5,293 bases of DNA, taken from DASVDK01 sp036381125 [NCBI: Thermodesulfobacteriota bacterium]. Lineage in GTDB: Bacteria > DASVDK01. The stretch is from NCBI GenBank assembly GCA_036381125.1, contig DASVDK010000179.1:1-5293 (forward strand). The letters run 5' to 3'. A program made the translations under genes and the position numbers. The number at the start of each line of letters is the position of its first letter. The stretch's first letter is position 1. Below, in pieces: positions 1 to 5,293 of this stretch. Under the pieces are notes generated by a model. It saw only the letters and a program-made list of their open reading frames with translations, was not told where the DNA came from and searched no databases.

Positions 1-441
1 GCCGATCGAGGCGCGAGCGCGGAAGGCCGCCTCGGCGGGCGGAAGCCCGGCGGGCAGCCGCACGAAGGCCGGGACCGCGAGCCCCGCGCGGGCGAGCCGC
101 TCGCGGCTCTCCGCCTTGTTGCGCGCGGCGTCGACGGCCGAGACGGGGTTGGCCGGGATCCCCAGGCGCTCGGCCACGGCGGCCGCCAGCGCCGCCGTGT
201 CGTCGTCGACCCCCACCACGGCATGCACGGGGTGGCGGGAGGCGAACTCGGCGGCGGCGGCGACGGCCCGCTCGCGGTCGTGGAACGGGAGCGTCAGGAA
301 CCCCGTGGGGTTGGCCGCCGCCATCACGTTGGGCTCCTCGGAGCCGACCGTGAGGTCGGCTCCGAGGCCAACGGCGGCCTTCATGAAGTCCTCCGCCCGG
401 TAGGTGCCGGTCGGCAGGAGGAGGAGGAGCCGCGGCCTCAG
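1..441 (-). CDS. ATP-grasp superfamily enzyme, N-terminal part (cut by window edge)
   Basis: Only the first 147 codons are inside the window; the frame is open to base 1. The start of the protein has a hydrophobic first beta strand (LLLLLPTGTYRAEDF), then GLGADLTVGSEEPNV, a VVGVDDDTA segment and NKAESRERLARAGLAVPAF. This is the pre-ATP-grasp fold followed by the 'NK..sR..L..aGl..P' signature that opens ATP-grasp ligases of the carbamoyl-phosphate synthase/biotin carboxylase-like branch. The ATP-binding lysine loop should lie just beyond the window. Such enzymes use ATP to activate a carboxylate and couple it to an amine or thiol; the substrate cannot be read here. No ATG, GTG or TTG precedes the first strand in frame. 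I therefore place the start at a CTG (441-439) overlapping the DUF169 stop as CTGA, with AGGGGG 8 bases upstream. The alternative is ATG at 384-382, with GGAGG 5 bases upstream, which would remove the first strand. It is the fourth gene of a minus-strand operon. Confidence 0.8.
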   Translation of the reverse strand, partial: MRPRLLLLLPTGTYRAEDFMKAAVGLGADLTVGSEEPNVMAAANPTGFLTLPFHDRERAVAAAAEFASRHPVHAVVGVDDDTAALAAAVAERLGIPANPVSAVDAARNKAESRERLARAGLAVPAFVRLPAGLPPAEAAFRARASIG

Positions 442-1142
442 GAGAGGCGCCCCCTGTGGAAGCGCTCGAGCTCGTCGTTCGCCTTGACGATGGTCTCGAG
501 CCGGTCGACGACGGCCCCGAGCGAGGCGCCGGGGAGGCTCGCGTAGAGCTCGCCGTCGGCGAGCCTCGTGTAGACGCGGTTGCCGATGCAGCCGAGGCTC
601 ACCGCCGCCCGGCCGGACGCCTCGGAGGCGGGGATGGCGGCGCAGGTCGGCCGCCCCATGACCGTGCCGTCGGGCCCCACGCCGGCCAGCGTGGCGGCCT
701 CGGTGAGGAGCATGATCTGCCTGGCCGTCCCGCGCACCATCACGACCGCCGGCTCCACCGGCGTCGCCTCGAGCGGCGCGTAGACGGCCACCTTGAGCGG
801 CGTCCTGCGCCGCGGGATCTGCGCCACCTCCTCCAGGCGGATGTACTGGAGGTCGACCATCGTGCCGATGAGCCCCTCGAGCTCCTTTGCCGTGGCGGGC
901 GGCAGCTCCACGGCATGCGTGTGGGCGCCGATGGGGCACGACATGTGGTCGGCCGCCTCGGTGTAGAAGGCGCCGGACTCGGCGGCCTTCGGCCAGTAGC
1001 CGCACCCGGCCGGTGCGGCGGCGGCGCGCGGGATCCCGGCGGGCGGCGCGTCCGGAAACGCGACCGCAACCGGCGGCGCCGCGAGGCCGAGAAGGGTCGT
1101 CAGGCGCCGGCCGGAAGCCCTGGCGGCATCGAGCGTCGTCAT
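438..1142 (-). CDS. DUF169 family protein
   Basis: This is a 234-residue protein of the DUF169 (COG2043) family, which has no established biochemical role. Family landmarks are visible: an N-terminal LTTLLGLAAPPVAVAF segment, CGYWPKA around residues 47-53, HMSCPIGAHTH around 67-76, MVRGTARQIMLLTEA around 135-149, GRPTCAAIP around 163-171 and SLGCIGNRVYT around 182-192. The four cysteines (47, 69, 167, 185) fall inside the conserved blocks, which would suit metal, cluster or thiol chemistry, but that is inference. Length is about normal for the family and there is no signal peptide or membrane segment. The ATG at 1142 is preceded by GGGAGG about 10 bases upstream and lies 16 bases beyond the Nfu stop. 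The stop overlaps the proposed start of the next gene. Tight packing argues for cotranscription with the Nfu scaffold and radical SAM genes. Confidence 0.9.
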   Translation of the reverse strand: MTTLDAARASGRRLTTLLGLAAPPVAVAFPDAPPAGIPRAAAAPAGCGYWPKAAESGAFYTEAADHMSCPIGAHTHAVELPPATAKELEGLIGTMVDLQYIRLEEVAQIPRRRTPLKVAVYAPLEATPVEPAVVMVRGTARQIMLLTEAATLAGVGPDGTVMGRPTCAAIPASEASGRAAVSLGCIGNRVYTRLADGELYASLPGASLGAVVDRLETIVKANDELERFHRGRLS

Positions 1143-1158: not shown

Positions 1159-1755
1159 TCACTTCTTCGCTGGCGAATAGTACGGGTTGGTCCCCAGCGC
1201 GTGCTCCGTGGTGTCGAGAATGGCCACCACCTCCGGCACCTGCTGCCGGATGGTGGCCTCGATGCCCTGCTTGAGCGTCACGTTGGCCATCCCGCAGCCC
1301 TGGCAGCCGCCGCCGAGCCGCACGTAGACGATCGCGTCCTCCACGTCGATCAGCTCGACGAAGCCGCCGTGCGAGGCGACGGCCGGGTTGATGTCCCGGT
1401 CGATGATGGTCTGGACCTTCTCGCGGATCCCCCGGTCCACCTCGCTCACCACCTTCGCCCCCTCCGCGATCGGCGGCACGCCGGACCGGAGCGCCTCGCG
1501 GATGGCGGCGCCGATCCGCTTGCCGATGACCGGCCAGGGATCGGGGTTGTCCTTCGTCACGGTCACCGTTCGACCCGAAACCGTGAGCGAGGTAACGCCG
1601 TCGATGTCGAGGATCTTTTCGGCCAGCGGAGAGCCGAGCGCTTTGTCGGGCGTGGCGAAGCGGATGGTCCCCTCCGGGTAGATCGGCCGGTCGACGACGA
1701 ACCGGCAGGTCCGGTCGTCCACCGGTTCACCCGTGATCCTGATCTCGTCGCTCAT
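1159..1755 (-). CDS. Nfu/NifU-type Fe-S cluster scaffold or carrier
   Basis: This 198-residue cytosolic protein has two domains. Residues about 5-90 (from IRITGEPVDDRTCRFVVDRP through FATPDKALGSPLAEKILDIDGVTSLTVSG to DPWPVIGKRIGAAI) match the Nfu N-terminal domain. Residues about 107-182 match the NifU C-terminal domain, with INPAVASHGG, an acidic strand, and the cluster-binding CxxC as GGCQGCGMA (C151, C154). Two such monomers bind a [4Fe-4S] cluster between their CxxC pairs and pass it to apoproteins. The length is close to that of other bacterial Nfu proteins. The start at ATG 1755 has a strong AAGGAGG 4 bases upstream. It begins 19 bases after the proposed true stop of the radical SAM selenoprotein. 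An obvious inference is that it supplies the cluster of that radical SAM enzyme or of the reductase on the other strand. Confidence 0.95.
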   Translation of the reverse strand: MSDEIRITGEPVDDRTCRFVVDRPIYPEGTIRFATPDKALGSPLAEKILDIDGVTSLTVSGRTVTVTKDNPDPWPVIGKRIGAAIREALRSGVPPIAEGAKVVSEVDRGIREKVQTIIDRDINPAVASHGGFVELIDVEDAIVYVRLGGGCQGCGMANVTLKQGIEATIRQQVPEVVAILDTTEHALGTNPYYSPAKK

Positions 1756-1774: not shown

Positions 1775-3247
1775 TCATGTTCGTTCGAGAGAGCCCAACT
1801 GGCCCTCGGTCGGCTCCGCTCAGCAGAACCACGCTTCGGCGAGCCTCGGGGGACGCCTTCCCGCCGGCGCTCCAGCCGCCGGCACCTTCCGACGGGGCGC
1901 GGCGTCCTCGCCTGCCGGCGCTCCACTCGCCGGCACCATCCGTTGCGGCGCGGGCACGCCTCCGGCTCGGCAGGAGGCGAGGTCCCGGAGCCGCTCGAAG
2001 GTCGACGCGTGCGGCTCCCCCGTGCGCGCGGCCTCCTCGACCAGCGCCGCCGCCTCGCGCTGGAGCGCGTCCATGCGGGGGTCTGGGTGCCGCCACCGGT
2101 ACGTGAACGCCGCCTCGTCGAGGTCGCCCAGGTGCGGCCGCATCGCGTCGGACCCGAGCAGGAGCGACCCGGGCGGCACGAGGAGCCTCAGCGTGTAGTG
2201 CACCGGGTCGATGTGCTCGACGAGCCCCTCGCCGTCGACCACCTCGAAGAGCTCACGATAGCTCTCGAGCGTTTCCCAAGGCGTGAACGGCACGAGCGTC
2301 GGTCGCAGGACGAGGCCGGCGGCTCGCGCGAGCGCCAGGACCTCGAGCACGTCGGCCCGCGTGTGCCCCTTGGCGAGACTGGCGAGCACCGTGTCGTTCA
2401 GCGACTCGACGGCGGTCACGACGAAGGCGCAGCCGGTCTCGACCAGCTCGGGAAGGAGGCGCCGGTGCCGGAGCAGGTGCTCCACCTTGATCGTGGCGTC
2501 GAACGTGACGTCCGGGAACTCGGCGTGGAGCGCCCGCGCCAGGCGCATGCCGTGCGTCGGCCCGTTGAAGAAGTCGGGGTCGCCGAACGTGATGTGGCGA
2601 GCCCCCGCGGCCACCTGCCGCCGGATGTCCTCGAGGACCACGTCGCGCGGCACGGCGAAGAACCGGCCGCCGTAGACCGGTGGAATCGGGCAGTGGCGAC
2701 ACGCGTGCCGACACCCCCGGCTGGCCTCGGTATAGCCGGCCACGTCGAGCCGCCCGTCGCCCCGATCGAGCGGCGCGTAGCGGGCGAGCGGCGGCAAGGC
2801 GGCCCGCGACGGCACGCCGAAGGACAGCCGCTCGAGGACCGGCTCGCGCGAGGGGGCCGGCGTCTCGCCCCGCTCGAGCGCCTGCGCCAGCTCGACCAGG
2901 CGCTGCTCGACCTCCCCGCCCAGCACCGAGTCGGCGCCGTGGCCGAGCAGGTGCTCGGCGTTCAGCGTGGCGTAGAGGCCGTAGAGGCAGACGTGCGCCC
3001 CGGGGTTGGCGGCCCGGACGGCCGCGAGCGCGCGCACGCCGAGCCGCAGCGCCGTGTGCATCGGGACCGAGATGGCCACGAGGCGGGCCCGCGACACCGC
3101 GGCGAGGTCGAGCCGCTCGGCGGCCAGGTCGAGTGCGGCCGGGCGGAAGCCCGCCCGCTCGAGGAAGCCGAGCGCCGAGGCCACCGCGAAGGGCTGGTGG
3201 CCGAGCTCGTAACAGGAAATGAGAAGCACCTCACCTTCGCCGCGCAT
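1775..3247 (-). CDS. B12-binding-type radical SAM selenoprotein with CUAEP tail (TGA at 1822-1820 read as Sec)
   Basis: Read through one TGA, this is a 490-residue protein. Residues 1-130 resemble a B12-binding Rossmann-like domain (VLLISCYELGHQPF start, VAISVPMHTAL, HVCLYGLYA, VLGGEVEQRL); the classic DxHxxG motif is not evident. The radical SAM core starts at SRGCRHACRHC (C179, C183, C186; Cx3Cx2C), with FGDPDFFNGP and DATIKVEHL downstream. It should therefore bind [4Fe-4S] and SAM and generate a 5'-deoxyadenosyl radical; the substrate is unknown. A low-complexity Pro/Ala/Gly linker (about 424-468) leads to PPRLAEAWFC475. Then come TGA (position 476), A-E-P and 11 further residues before a TGA at 1777-1775. 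C-U-A-E-P is the hallmark of the radical SAM family I recall as 'CUAEP/CCAEP-tail', where U is selenocysteine or is replaced by Cys. Readthrough shortens the gap to Nfu from 64 to 19 bases. The start may be ATG 3247 or the in-frame GTG 3229-3227, which fits the usual N terminus better. Confidence 0.88.
1789..1807 (-). promoter_or_regulatory. Candidate bacterial SECIS hairpin
   Basis: In the RNA of the minus strand, GAGGGCC (1807-1801) pairs with GGCUCUC (1795-1789), giving 7 bp including one G-U. The loop is AGUUG. The stem begins 12 bases after the UGA and the loop 19 bases after it, with G as second loop base. Bacterial SECIS elements lie within the coding region just behind the UGA and usually have a small apical loop with a G in its first two positions, where SelB binds. 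An alternative pairing, GAGCC with GGCUC (1816-1812 with 1796-1792), competes. The identification rests on hand folding only. Confidence 0.6.
1820..1822 (-). other. In-frame TGA proposed to encode selenocysteine
   Basis: The codons are TGG TTC TGC TGA GCG GAG CCG, giving W-F-C-U-A-E-P. The match to a known selenoprotein tail on both sides of the TGA is the evidence. A simple stop codon would not explain Ala-Glu-Pro-Thr-Glu following directly in frame. Confidence 0.87.
1863..1937 (-). repeat. Two palindromic repeat units, 51 bases apart, inside the radical SAM linker
   Basis: Each unit has the form GCCGGCG - 7 bases - CGCCGGC followed on the plus strand by ACC (units at 1863-1886 and 1914-1937). 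The two units differ at only two or three loop positions. Each arm pair is a perfect 7-bp inverted repeat, so the transcript can form two hairpins. The 51-base period equals 17 codons, so the protein also repeats (VPASGAPAG and VPAAGAPAG). I see no further copies in the window. It may be a small duplicated palindromic element tolerated in a linker. Confidence 0.75.
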
Positions 3248-3302: not shown

Positions 3303-3428
3303 ATGTTCGACCTGCGCGCCGCCGCCTGCGCCTGTTGTTGTCGCCCCTCCGGGGCTGCGTGCATGCGCACGCCCCTGGCGGCCTCGGGCTCGCGCGCGCC
3401 GGTCACCCGGAGCGCCGCGCCGCGATAG
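3303..3428 (+). CDS. Cysteine-rich leader peptide (polycysteine uORF)
   Basis: This is a 41-codon ORF from ATG 3303 to TAG 3426-3428. The N-terminal part reads MFDLRAAACACCCRPSG, with cysteines at codons 9, 11, 12 and 13 and another at 20. Codons 11-13 are UGU UGU UGU, although Cys in the genes of this window is nearly always UGC. The ORF lies directly behind a promoter-like sequence and upstream of a sirohaem reductase-type gene. Leaderless polycysteine ORFs are known in mycobacteria as cysteine-responsive attenuators upstream of the sulfite reductase gene, and short leader peptides precede sulfur genes in other actinobacteria. By analogy, slow decoding of the Cys run when Cys-tRNA is scarce would change folding of the downstream leader and raise reductase expression. 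The peptide itself probably has no function. Attenuation here is inference; the ORF, Cys run and location are seen directly. Confidence 0.65.
   Translation: MFDLRAAACACCCRPSGAACMRTPLAASGSRAPVTRSAAPR
3343..3375 (+). promoter_or_regulatory. Mutually exclusive hairpins just behind the Cys codons
   Basis: The segment GGGGC (3351-3355) can pair with GCCCC on its left (3343-3347, loop UCC) or with GCCCC on its right (3371-3375). The right-hand option is extended by GUGC (3359-3362) pairing with GCAC (3367-3370). The left arm starts 2 bases after the third UGU codon, so a ribosome waiting there would cover it and favour the right-hand hairpin. This is the standard geometry of a translation-controlled switch. 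It was folded by hand. Confidence 0.5.
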
Positions 3429-3577: not shown

Positions 3578-4554
3578 ATGGCGTCAGCGGCACACGTCGA
3601 GGCGGTCAAGAAGTCGAAGAACCCCCTCGACGTCCTCGAGGACATCCGGCGCTACGCGCGCGAGGGCCTCGCGGCCATCGATCCGGACGACCGGGACATC
3701 CGCTTCAGGTGGTTCGGCCTCTACACCCAGCGCCCCCTCGAGGACGGCTATTTCATGCTGCGCGTGAAGCTGCCGGGCGGTCAGGCGACGGCCGACCAGT
3801 TCGAGGCGCTGGCCGACATCTCGGAGCGGTACGGTTGCGGCGTCCTCGACGTCACCGACCGGCAGAACGTCCAGTTCCACTGGCTGCGGATCGAGGACAT
3901 CCCGGCGGTCTTCGACGCGACGCCAGCCCTCGAGGCGGCGAGCCGCCACGTCACCGGGAACCGCGAGTTCTCGGACCTCCCGCGGAAGTACAGGGTCTCC
4001 ATCGCCGCCTGCGGCCACCGGTGCACGCACCCGGAGATCAACGACGTGGCGCTCGTCGGCGTGTCGCACGGCGACATGCGCGGCTTCGACCTCTGGGTGG
4101 GCGGCGGCCTCAGCACGGCGCCTCGGTTCGCGACGCCGCTCGGCGTCTTCGTCCCCGAGGCGGAGGCGGTCGAGACGAGCCTCGGCCGCCCCCTCGCCGA
4201 CGGGCCTCCGGCGCCCGACCCCGACGACCCGCTCGCCGACCGGCTCGAGGCGGACGGGCTCTCCGTCGGACGCCGCTCGTACCGTGCACAGACGATGGCC
4301 TGCACCGGCATCGAGTTCTGCAAGCTCGCCGACATCGGGCTGCTCGGCTCGCGGGTGAAGGTGGGCGGGGAGGCGCGGCAGGCCTACCAGGTTTACCTCG
4401 GCGGCCGCGGCGGCGCGCGGCGGCGCTCGAGGCGCTCGGGGCGGCCGAGAGCGACCCGGCGCACGAGGTGCTGACGCCGGGCGGCGCCGACGCCCCTGCC
4501 GACGACCCCATTGCGCTCGCGGCCGCCGCGGCCGGAGCAGGAGACCTGCCATGA
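3578..4554 (+). pseudogene. Sirohaem nitrite/sulfite reductase-like gene, multiply deleted and frameshifted
   Basis: From ATG 3578 (GAGGAG about 10 bases upstream) the frame encodes the landmarks of ferredoxin-type nitrite/sulfite reductases in the right order. They are DGYFMLRVKLPGG (about 56-68), VLDVTDRQNVQFHW (89-102), FSDLPRKYRVSIAACGHRCTHPEINDVALVG (131-161), VGGGLSTAPRF (174-184), TMACTGIEFCKLA (239-251) and DIGLLG plus YQVYLGG (252-276). Family members have about 500-570 residues; here only 298 codons precede the TGA at 4472. Blocks expected between the landmarks are absent. They include the ACGD...CPVAG segment after VF112, the 'IFRDYG...RxRxRxKFL' segment after E199, and the NVNGCPNxC segment after A251 with the second pair of Fe4S4/sirohaem cysteines. 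Behind YLGG the natural-looking tail (LEALGAAESDPAHEV) continues in another frame to TGA 4552-4554, overlapping the next ATG. As written it cannot hold the coupled cofactor, so it is either a decayed gene or an assembly error. Confidence 0.75.
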
Positions 4555-5293
4555 CGAAGATCTTCGTGATCCACGAGCACGACGTCTGGGTCGAGCCGCT
4601 CCGCGAGGCGTTCCGCGCGGAGGGGCTCCCCTTCGAGGAGTGGTTCCTCGACGAGGGCACGCTCGACCTGTCGGCCACGCCGCCCGACGGCGTCTTCTAC
4701 AACCGGATGAGCGCGTCCTCCCATACGCGCGACCACCGGTACGCGGCCGAGTACACCGGCCTCGTCCTCGCCTGGCTCGAGTCGCACGGTCGGCGCGTCG
4801 TCAACAACGGCCGCGCCCTCCAGCTCGAGATCAGCAAGGTGGCGCAGTACGAGGCGCTCCGCGCGTTCGGCATCCGGACGCCGCGAACCGTGGCCGCGGT
4901 CGGACGCCGTCACGTGATCGAGGCAGCGCGCGCGTTCGAGCCGCCGTTCATCACGAAGCACAACCGGGCCGGCAAGGGGCTCGGCGTGCGCCTGTTCCGC
5001 TCCCACGACGCCCTGCGCGCGTACGTCGAGGGCCCGGACTTCGAGGTGCCGGTCGACGGCGTCACCCTCGTGCAGCAGTACGTCCAGGCGCCCGAGCCCT
5101 TCATCACCCGCGTGGAGTTCGTCGGAGGCCGGCTCCTCTACGCGGTCCGGGTCGACACCTCGCTCGGCTTCGAGCTCTGCCCGGCCGACGACTGCCGGAC
5201 CGGCGACGCCTTCTGCCCGACCACGCCGTCGCCGGCGCCCCGATTCCGCATCCTGCCGAGCTTCGACCACCCGATCGTCGAGCGCTACCGGCG
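4551..5293 (+). CDS. ATP-grasp ligase (RimK/glutathione synthetase-like), N-terminal 247 residues
   Basis: ATG 4551 overlaps the final TGA of the reductase tail frame as ATGA, with AGGAG 7 bases upstream, pointing to translational coupling. The frame is open to the window end. Residues 1-90 form a pre-ATP-grasp domain (MTKIFVIHEHDVWVEPL, VFYNRMSASSHTR, RRVVNNGRAL). The ATP-grasp part follows with EISKVAQYEALRAFGIRTPRTV (93-114), the lysine and glycine-rich loop ITKHNRAGKGLGV (134-146), the adenine-site strand LVQQYVQAPEPFITRVEF (173-190) and GGRLLYAVRV (192-201). Such proteins join an amino acid or peptide to a carboxylate using ATP; the substrate is not evident. Several cysteines (210, 215, 222) lie in a segment specific to this branch. 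It is not related in detail to the ATP-grasp protein at the left edge. It probably belongs to the plus-strand unit controlled by the cysteine-rich leader. Confidence 0.88.
   Translation, partial: MTKIFVIHEHDVWVEPLREAFRAEGLPFEEWFLDEGTLDLSATPPDGVFYNRMSASSHTRDHRYAAEYTGLVLAWLESHGRRVVNNGRALQLEISKVAQYEALRAFGIRTPRTVAAVGRRHVIEAARAFEPPFITKHNRAGKGLGVRLFRSHDALRAYVEGPDFEVPVDGVTLVQQYVQAPEPFITRVEFVGGRLLYAVRVDTSLGFELCPADDCRTGDAFCPTTPSPAPRFRILPSFDHPIVERYR

What the first reader, a model, noticed from the sequence alone, without database searches (positions are those of the whole stretch)
1775..1830. TGA-containing radical SAM gene: a CUAEP selenoprotein that standard annotation would truncate
The codons TGC TGA GCG GAG CCG give Cys-Sec-Ala-Glu-Pro after a radical SAM core with Cx3Cx2C. 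From established knowledge, a radical SAM family with a C-terminal CUAEP or CCAEP tail exists. In this gene the tail is complete only if the TGA is read as selenocysteine. A further 14 residues follow to a stop lying 19 bases before the strong ribosome site and start of Nfu. The Cys-Sec pair at the tail could form a selenenylsulfide or ligate a metal or substrate; that is inference.
Basis: partly seen in the sequence, partly recalled or inferred. Interest (0 to 1): 0.9.

Follow-up and report, generated by a model that had tools for sequence, protein, structure and literature searches.

The report
Selenocysteine-tailed radical SAM enzyme gene
The gene's in-frame TGA is almost certainly read as the rare amino acid selenocysteine, which makes this a full-length member of a catalogued but uncharacterised enzyme family related to the arsenic-antibiotic enzyme ArsL.

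Summary
A minus-strand radical SAM gene (3247..1775) reads ...WFC-TGA-AEP-TEGQLGSLERT-TGA. It scores 680 bits against NCBIfam NF040546, 'CUAEP/CCAEP-tail radical SAM (seleno)protein' (cut-off 500), so family and selenocysteine (Sec) tail are already catalogued. Of 82 sequences, 65 have TGA at this codon (window included), 16 Cys, none TAA/TAG; one contig ends first. Glu and Pro behind it are invariant in 65 aligned proteins. A SECIS hairpin follows the TGA, with far more compensatory cells than shuffles (40 against 15.5); Cys forms lack it. A model built without window or Rokubacteria finds the window at 57 bits. At least one of SelA, SelB or tRNA-Sec was found in 34 of 34 TGA genomes and 8 of 16 Cys genomes; the window's own genome is not held. 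Added here: SECIS evidence, repeated Sec/Cys exchange, and recurrent neighbours Nfu, DUF169 and an L-amino-acid-ligase-type ATP-grasp. The nearest family is ArsL. Most likely chemistry (inferred, 0.35): aminocarboxypropyl transfer to an atom held by Cys-Sec, then peptide ligation. New member of a known kind.

The parts
1775..3247 (-). CUAEP-tail radical SAM selenoprotein gene, 490 residues with one Sec
   Evidence: NCBIfam NF040546 680.2 bits, cut-off 500; translation with TGA read through; AlphaFold2 model mean pLDDT 92.8 from an alignment of 65 sequences
2690..2713 (-). Cx3Cx2C motif (C179, C183, C186) for the SAM-binding 4Fe-4S cluster
   Evidence: invariant in 65 aligned proteins; PF04055 58.4 bits
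1820..1822 (-). in-frame TGA read as selenocysteine (residue 476)
   Evidence: TGA in 65, Cys in 16, TAA/TAG in 0 of 82 sequences, 1 unreadable
1811..1825 (-). Cys-Sec-Ala-Glu-Pro tail motif
   Evidence: W473 F474 C475 C/U476 E478 P479 invariant in 65 aligned proteins
1789..1807 (-). SECIS apical hairpin: stem 1807-1801 with 1795-1789, loop 1800-1796 (AGTTG)
   Evidence: 40 cells with compensatory change against 15.5 in shuffles over 43 homologues; covariance model without the window finds 1822-1781 at 57.0 bits; Cys homologues lack the stem; against it, a competing fold is 0.5 kcal/mol better in the window
1775..1777 (-). true terminator, also TGA
1159..1755 (-). Nfu-type Fe-S carrier, next gene of the presumed operon
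   Evidence: PF01106 87.2 bits, PF08712 48.5 bits; homologue on the same strand downstream in 24 of 80 related loci
438..1142 (-). DUF169 protein, third gene
   Evidence: PF02596 78.2 bits; downstream in 8 of 80 related loci
1..447 (-). N-terminal part of an ATP-grasp ligase, cut by the window end (exact start codon not fixed)
   Evidence: PF18130 40.6 bits; homologues on the same strand within 3.5 kb in 24 of 80 loci; the full homologue in L011 has PF13535 and LAL_C2 and matches L-amino acid ligase 3vot at E 2.5e-50

Best explanation
The gene encodes a selenoprotein. A SECIS hairpin just behind the UGA recruits SelB with tRNA-Sec, so this UGA is decoded as Sec and translation continues 14 residues to a second UGA, which terminates. 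The product is a radical SAM enzyme with a B12-binding-like N-terminal fold and a C-terminal Cys-Sec pair, a member of NF040546 (this identity: about 0.95). What it most likely does (inferred, about 0.35): like its nearest characterised relative ArsL, it cleaves SAM to a 3-amino-3-carboxypropyl radical and attaches that group to a soft atom (metalloid or chalcogen) held by the Cys-Sec tail. This would give a non-protein amino acid, which the operon's ATP-grasp L-amino acid ligase then couples into a peptide; Nfu would supply or repair the 4Fe-4S cluster; DUF169 is unassigned. The number below is for the selenoprotein identity and the operon; the chemistry carries its own 0.35.
For: Family: 680.2 bits, cut-off 500. 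Codon: 65 TGA, 16 Cys, 0 TAA/TAG, 1 unreadable of 82. Protein-level selection behind the TGA: Glu and Pro invariant with only third-position change. SECIS: mean apical stem 6.1 bp in 64 TGA sequences, 3.25 in 16 Cys sequences, 3.2 in shuffles; own-arm pairing exceeds swapped arms in all 2000 trials in both registers, not so for Cys forms; 40 cells changed on both sides against 15.5 in shuffles, and paired cells and covariation score above all 500 shuffles; window found at 57.0 bits by a model built without it. Machinery: tRNA-Sec 32/34, SelA 32/34, SelB 33/34 TGA genomes against 8/16, 8/16, 7/16 Cys genomes. Code is standard: the neighbours Nfu and DUF169 also end in TGA. Relation to ArsL: NF040542 295 bits, third-ranked family 52. 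ArsL makes a C-As bond with the aminocarboxypropyl group (passages of PMC8552651). Partner ligase; ArsL-type clusters of a Priestia and an Alicyclobacillus plasmid also hold an ATP-grasp gene.
Against: The window's own genome could not be searched for SelA, SelB or tRNA-Sec. In the window, the 45-nt minimum-energy fold is an alternative hairpin 0.5 kcal/mol better than the SECIS form (pair probability 0.26), and several TGA members, mostly Chloroflexota, have weak hairpins. The bare number of pairs with a two-sided change (6 of 7) is not unusual against shuffles (126 of 500 reach it), nor is the number of pair types (310 of 500). The covariance model scores one Cys locus (L021, 32.9 bits) above two TGA loci (L018 31.6, L041 17.1). 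Two of 34 TGA genomes lack a found tRNA-Sec, two lack SelA, one lacks SelB (completeness not told); the tRNA-Sec model also passes its cut-off in 5 of 14 control genomes. For the chemistry: 14 of 16 accompanying proteins of three ArsL-type clusters, ArsM, ArsN, ArsQ and ArsR among them, have no hit in the neighbourhoods; the tail is not the RCCLKC tail; the ATP-grasp proteins of the two kinds of cluster are only 22-32% identical and one of the three ArsL-type stretches shows none, so the shared partner may be convergent; no residue diagnostic of aminocarboxypropyl chemistry was tested.
Confidence: 0.93

Rival explanations
1. The TGA is an ordinary stop: the protein ends ...WFC-COOH and the matching downstream codons are leftovers or chance.
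For: The annotation of the T. roseum homologue ends there; the window's SECIS has a competing fold.
Against: Glu and Pro invariant behind the codon, third-position-only change, Cys in 16 homologues that read straight through, no TAA or TAG in 82, covarying SECIS, Sec machinery in TGA genomes.
Confidence: 0.02
2. Cys-Sec is a redox pair (selenenylsulfide) that reduces or re-arms the enzyme or its substrate during turnover, as in other C-terminal Cys-Sec proteins; the radical SAM reaction itself may be of 5'-deoxyadenosyl or methyl-transfer type.
For: Vicinal Cys-Sec at a C-terminal tail; the predicted fold's best solved relatives are AprD4, MgmA, OxsB and TsrM, which do 5'-deoxyadenosyl or methyl chemistry (recalled).
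Against: Sequence relationship to ArsL is far stronger than to those families. No reductase partner was seen among the few neighbour clusters that were put to family searches; most clusters were not.
Confidence: 0.25
4. It is simply an ArsL isozyme making arsinothricin-like amino acids from arsenite.
For: ArsL is the nearest family and tail thiols suit arsenite (inference).
Against: Below the ArsL cut-off (295 against 450); separated from three ArsL-type proteins with 100/100 support; no homologue of the arsenic genes of three ArsL-type clusters found nearby.
Confidence: 0.1

Closest known systems
NCBIfam NF040546, CUAEP/CCAEP-tail radical SAM (seleno)protein
   Same: Whole-length match above the cut-off, same tail, Sec or Cys at the same place
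   Different: Nothing that excludes membership; against the T. roseum copy the window has a longer low-complexity linker before the tail, and its terminator after the Sec TGA is again TGA, as in 29 of 65 TGA sequences
ArsL, arsinothricin biosynthesis radical SAM protein (NF040542, RCCLKC tail)
   Same: Homologous over residues 7-406, 34-40% identical in the best blastp hits listed; two vicinal thiols near the C terminus; ATP-grasp gene nearby in the Priestia and Alicyclobacillus clusters
   Different: Tail RCCLKC, not WFCUAEP; no Sec in the three compared; arsenic genes around them, none of these found around CUAEP genes
Other Cys-Sec selenoproteins catalogued from NCBIfam: SaoC, MbdU (rows of Table 1 in PMC13188914, passages seen)
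   Same: Vicinal Cys-Sec; SaoC is credited to a paper whose title speaks of organometallic biochemistry (reference line seen)
   Different: Unrelated proteins (recalled); no NF040546 found in that review
Solved radical SAM enzymes AprD4 (6fd2), MgmA (9ccb), OxsB (5ul4), TsrM (6wtf)
   Same: Same two-domain fold, Z 25-27
   Different: 13-21% identity; no Cys-Sec tail known (recalled)

Membership tests
NF040546 CUAEP/CCAEP-tail radical SAM (seleno)protein | score above the curated cut-off of 500 bits | tested here: met
   680.2 bits over model 1-467 of 468
NF040546 CUAEP/CCAEP-tail radical SAM (seleno)protein | C-terminal C-[U/C]-A-E-P | tested here: met
   TGC TGA GCG GAG CCG at 1825-1811
NF040546 CUAEP/CCAEP-tail radical SAM (seleno)protein | radical SAM core with Cx3Cx2C | tested here: met
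   PF04055 58.4 bits; C179, C183, C186 invariant
bacterial selenoprotein | UGA aligned with Cys in homologues, coding conserved downstream | tested here: met
bacterial selenoprotein | SECIS hairpin just downstream of the UGA | tested here: met
   caveats: competing fold in the window, number of pairs with two-sided change not unusual by itself
bacterial selenoprotein | SelA, SelB, tRNA-Sec in the same genome | not testable with these tools
   own genome not held; of 34 TGA relatives' genomes 34 have at least one of the three, and 9 of 9 Rokubacteria tested have all three
bacterial selenoprotein | Sec present in the protein | not testable with these tools
   needs mass spectrometry or 75Se label
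ArsL (NF040542) | score above 450 bits | tested here: not met
   295.2 bits
ArsL (NF040542) | RCCLKC tail | tested here: not met
   window tail is WFCUAEPTEGQ; three ArsL-type proteins end RCCLKC
ArsL (NF040542) | arsenic genes alongside (arsQ, arsM) | tested here: not met
   blastp at 1e-5 of 16 accompanying proteins from three ArsL-type clusters against frames of 90 codons or more in the 82 stretches: 14 without a hit, the 2 ATP-grasp proteins with hits; the stretches end at contig or window ends
B12-binding domain protein (PF02310) | score above gathering 32.1 bits | tested here: not met
   28.0 bits in the window, 32.0 in L002; the fold is shared with cobalamin enzymes

The most novel reading that the evidence does not exclude
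A selenium-dependent ArsL-like branch, spread over at least ten phyla of mostly uncultured bacteria (labels), joins the aminocarboxypropyl group of SAM to a metalloid or chalcogen held by a Cys-Sec tail, and a dedicated L-amino acid ligase turns the product into a peptide: an unknown class of element-carbon natural products.
Probability: 0.25. Interest if true: 0.8.

Novelty: new member of a known kind. Interest (0 to 1): 0.42.

Why it matters
It confirms by comparison a Sec codon in a family that at least one annotated record still truncates, and adds SECIS and Sec-machinery evidence. It ties the family to ArsL and to an L-amino acid ligase, which gives a concrete, testable chemistry for an enzyme without a known function. 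Repeated Sec/Cys exchange (5 changes on the tree, at least 3 forced) makes the family a natural test of what selenium adds.

Tried and rejected
TGA as an ordinary stop: rejected. A different genetic code for TGA: rejected, since Nfu, DUF169 and this gene itself end in TGA. Arsenic context: tested with proteins of three ArsL-type clusters; apart from the radical SAM proteins themselves only the two ATP-grasp proteins had hits. The nitrite-reductase-like gene was first scanned in a wrong frame (protein 5, no hit), corrected. The window's ATP-grasp fragment was first translated in a wrong frame (in the neighbourhood search it matched only the window), corrected. The Rfam scan of the window found nothing at the gathering scores. 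The distance of the tail to the active site could not be measured: no coordinates reach the script box. Literature: 'CUAEP', 'RCCLKC' and 'NF040546' occur in 0 papers of the held library; two papers by Haft and co-workers cited by the review are not held, so whether they discuss this family is unknown to me.

Rows dropped before counts: L027 (contig ends before the tail) is left out of the TGA/Cys ratio and of the operon counts; L076 (contig ends) is left out of the hairpin counts. The 80 loci are the best 80 of 355 matching stretches, so distant relatives are missing. The 80 loci of the operon counts are 79 of these plus L001. Genome tests used 50 of the 80 fetched genome loci: all 16 Cys and 34 of 63 TGA loci, picked by hand for spread, because a call takes at most 50. 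The model search was given 37 sources: the window, L001, 19 Rokubacteria and the 16 Cys loci. The Fisher tests are not corrected for relatedness: the 8 Cys genomes without machinery are Nitrospirota, Bacteroidota and Ignavibacteriota, the 8 with it are Chloroflexota.

Full report
WHAT IS THERE. The minus strand of the window carries, in order, a radical SAM gene (3247..1775), an Nfu-type Fe-S carrier (1755..1159), a DUF169 protein (1142..438) and the first part of an ATP-grasp protein (about 447..1, cut by the window end). In the radical SAM gene, codon 476 is TGA (1822-1820), preceded by TGC and followed by GCG GAG CCG and 11 further codons to a second TGA at 1777-1775.

FAMILY. The read-through protein scores 680.2 bits against NCBIfam NF040546 'CUAEP/CCAEP-tail radical SAM (seleno)protein' (cut-off 500), 295.2 against ArsL (NF040542, cut-off 450), and 52.4 or less against the other 12 families listed. 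So the family and its Sec form are already catalogued.

IS THE TGA READ AS SEC? A scan of genome contigs (84,980 species genomes) gave 355 stretches that encode a relative, of which the best 80 were fetched. With the T. roseum copy and the window that makes 82 sequences: 65 TGA, 16 TGC or TGT, none TAA or TAG, 1 unreadable because the contig ends. Behind the codon, Glu and Pro are invariant in the 65 aligned proteins. In the 65 TGA sequences their codons change only at third positions (GAG 57, GAA 8; CCG 28, CCC 22, CCA 12, CCT 3), and Ala is kept in 64 of 65. This is selection on protein downstream of a stop codon.

SECIS. Counting the T of TGA as 1, bases 16-22 pair with 28-34 around a loop AGTTN. 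Mean uninterrupted stem: 6.1 bp in 64 TGA sequences (window among them), 3.25 in the 16 Cys sequences, 3.2 in shuffles. Own arms pair better than arms swapped between sequences in all 2000 trials in both loop registers (12 and 31 distinct arm pairs); in Cys forms they do not. On 43 TGA sequences without the window, 19 Rokubacteria, L001 and L076, 40 cells show changes on both sides of a pair against 15.5 +- 3.2 in shuffles, and paired cells (82.7%) and covariation score (0.389) exceed all 500 shuffles and every slid register; but the number of pairs with such a change (6 of 7) is reached by 126 of 500 shuffles and the number of pair types by 310. The Gln codon in the loop is CAG in 62 of 64 TGA sequences and never CAA; the Cys forms also use CAA (3 of 16). 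A covariance model of those 43 ranks the window third in a search of 37 sources, at 57.0 bits and E 8e-15. It also scores most Cys loci (up to 32.9 bits, L021), since the flanking codons are shared, and two TGA loci fall below that (L018 31.6, L041 17.1). In the window alone a different hairpin is 0.5 kcal/mol better, and some hairpins, mostly of Chloroflexota, are weak.

SEC MACHINERY. No genome is held for the window. In 50 genomes of relatives (34 TGA, 16 Cys): tRNA-Sec at 64 bits or more in 32/34 against 8/16 (the next matches score 52.2 bits or less); SelB over cut-off in 33/34 against 7/16; SelA in 32/34 against 8/16. At least one of the three: 34/34 against 8/16 (Fisher p 2e-5, not corrected for kinship). 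All nine Rokubacteria tested have all three. Among 14 control genomes SelA passes its cut-off in 1, SelB in 2 and the tRNA-Sec model in 5, so the tRNA model alone is the least specific. On the family tree, Sec and Cys states need 5 changes, at least 3 forced by well-supported branches: repeated exchange. The window falls beside a Chloroflexota/Thermomicrobiota clade with modest support (89/86), and its highest identity is 66%, to a Rokubacterium, so its phylum stays open.

OPERON. Counted over 80 loci with a readable tail (79 of genome contigs and L001). An Nfu homologue lies on the same strand downstream in 24: 21 by the position rule, plus L003, L004 and L080, whose stop-to-stop frames start further upstream but end at +350 to +431. 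ATP-grasp homologues of the window fragment lie on the same strand within 3.5 kb in 24 and on the opposite strand in 8 more, one of them 5.3 kb away; DUF169 is downstream in 8. 64 of the loci hold more than 2.2 kb downstream. A full ATP-grasp homologue (L011) has the L-amino acid ligase C-terminal domain LAL_C2, and its best solved relative is L-amino acid ligase BL00235 (3vot, E 2.5e-50). An Fe-trafficking protein (PF04362, tested on L073) belongs to a gene cluster found upstream in 20 loci, 19 Chloroflexota and 1 Myxococcota. Most other neighbour clusters were not put to family searches.

STRUCTURE. AlphaFold2 from an alignment of 65: mean pLDDT 92.8, pTM 0.91; residues 461-480 around 80, 441-460 and 481-490 lower (51-64). 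The fold is that of AprD4, MgmA, OxsB and TsrM (Z 25-27). Several alignments end at model residues 470-489, which suggests that the tail packs on the radical SAM barrel (inference from ranges alone). Invariant Cys12, Cys475 and Cys/Sec476 could form one site (inference); the three ArsL-type proteins compared lack the Cys12 equivalent.

MECHANISM. Shown by comparison: Sec codon, SECIS, machinery in relatives, recurrent neighbours. Inferred: ArsL attaches the 3-amino-3-carboxypropyl group of SAM to As(III) (passages of PMC8552651). A sister family with a Cys-Sec tail, beside an amino acid ligase, fits the same chemistry on another soft atom, with the amino acid product then ligated. ArsL-type clusters of two Firmicutes also carry an ATP-grasp gene, the Pseudomonas stretch shows none; the two kinds of ligase are only 22-32% identical, and no homologue of the arsenic genes of those clusters was found beside CUAEP genes. 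I give this chemistry 0.35; redox use of Cys-Sec and an auxiliary cluster are the main rivals.

NOVELTY. The kind is known from NCBIfam; this is a new member. The search terms CUAEP, RCCLKC and NF040546 occur in no paper of the held library. A 2026 review of the prokaryotic selenoproteome holds no NF040546, and its three 'radical SAM' places are two other table rows and one reference. The relevant NCBI papers are not held, so I make no claim about print. Seen of papers: PMC8552651, 12 passages; PMC13188914, passages; PMC12013277, a term search with no hit.

Noticed in passing
window 3578-4474 (+): A NirA-type nitrite/sulfite reductase gene looks decayed or misassembled: 298 residues against a 513-position family model; aligned to 1zj8, the chain advances from 279 to 403 between residues 199 and 217, and from 437 to 485 between residues 251 and 252. 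The reading frame also seems to change near 4415 (judged by eye).
   Followed up: partly
window 3303-3428 (+): A short open frame, MFDLRAAACACCCRPSGAAC..., upstream of the reductase gene is rich in Cys near its start and may be a cysteine-sensing leader peptide (inference).
   Followed up: no
window 4551-5293 (+): A RimK/LysX-like ATP-grasp gene (46.9 bits to TIGR00768, below its cut-off), not detectably similar to the operon's ATP-grasp.
   Followed up: no
L032, L046, L057, L074 (Thermogemmatispora): Cys-form tails carry long extra Cys-containing extensions (e.g. CAEPTRGQFGSC...DCCGVGH in L032), and the first three keep a 4-5 bp remnant of the hairpin, as if Sec had been lost recently.
   Followed up: no
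L014, L020, L028, L034, L048 (Poribacteria): Nfu sits upstream instead of downstream, and a gene that looks like a cobalamin adenosyltransferase follows at about +1.5 kb (the latter name is recalled, not tested).
   Followed up: no
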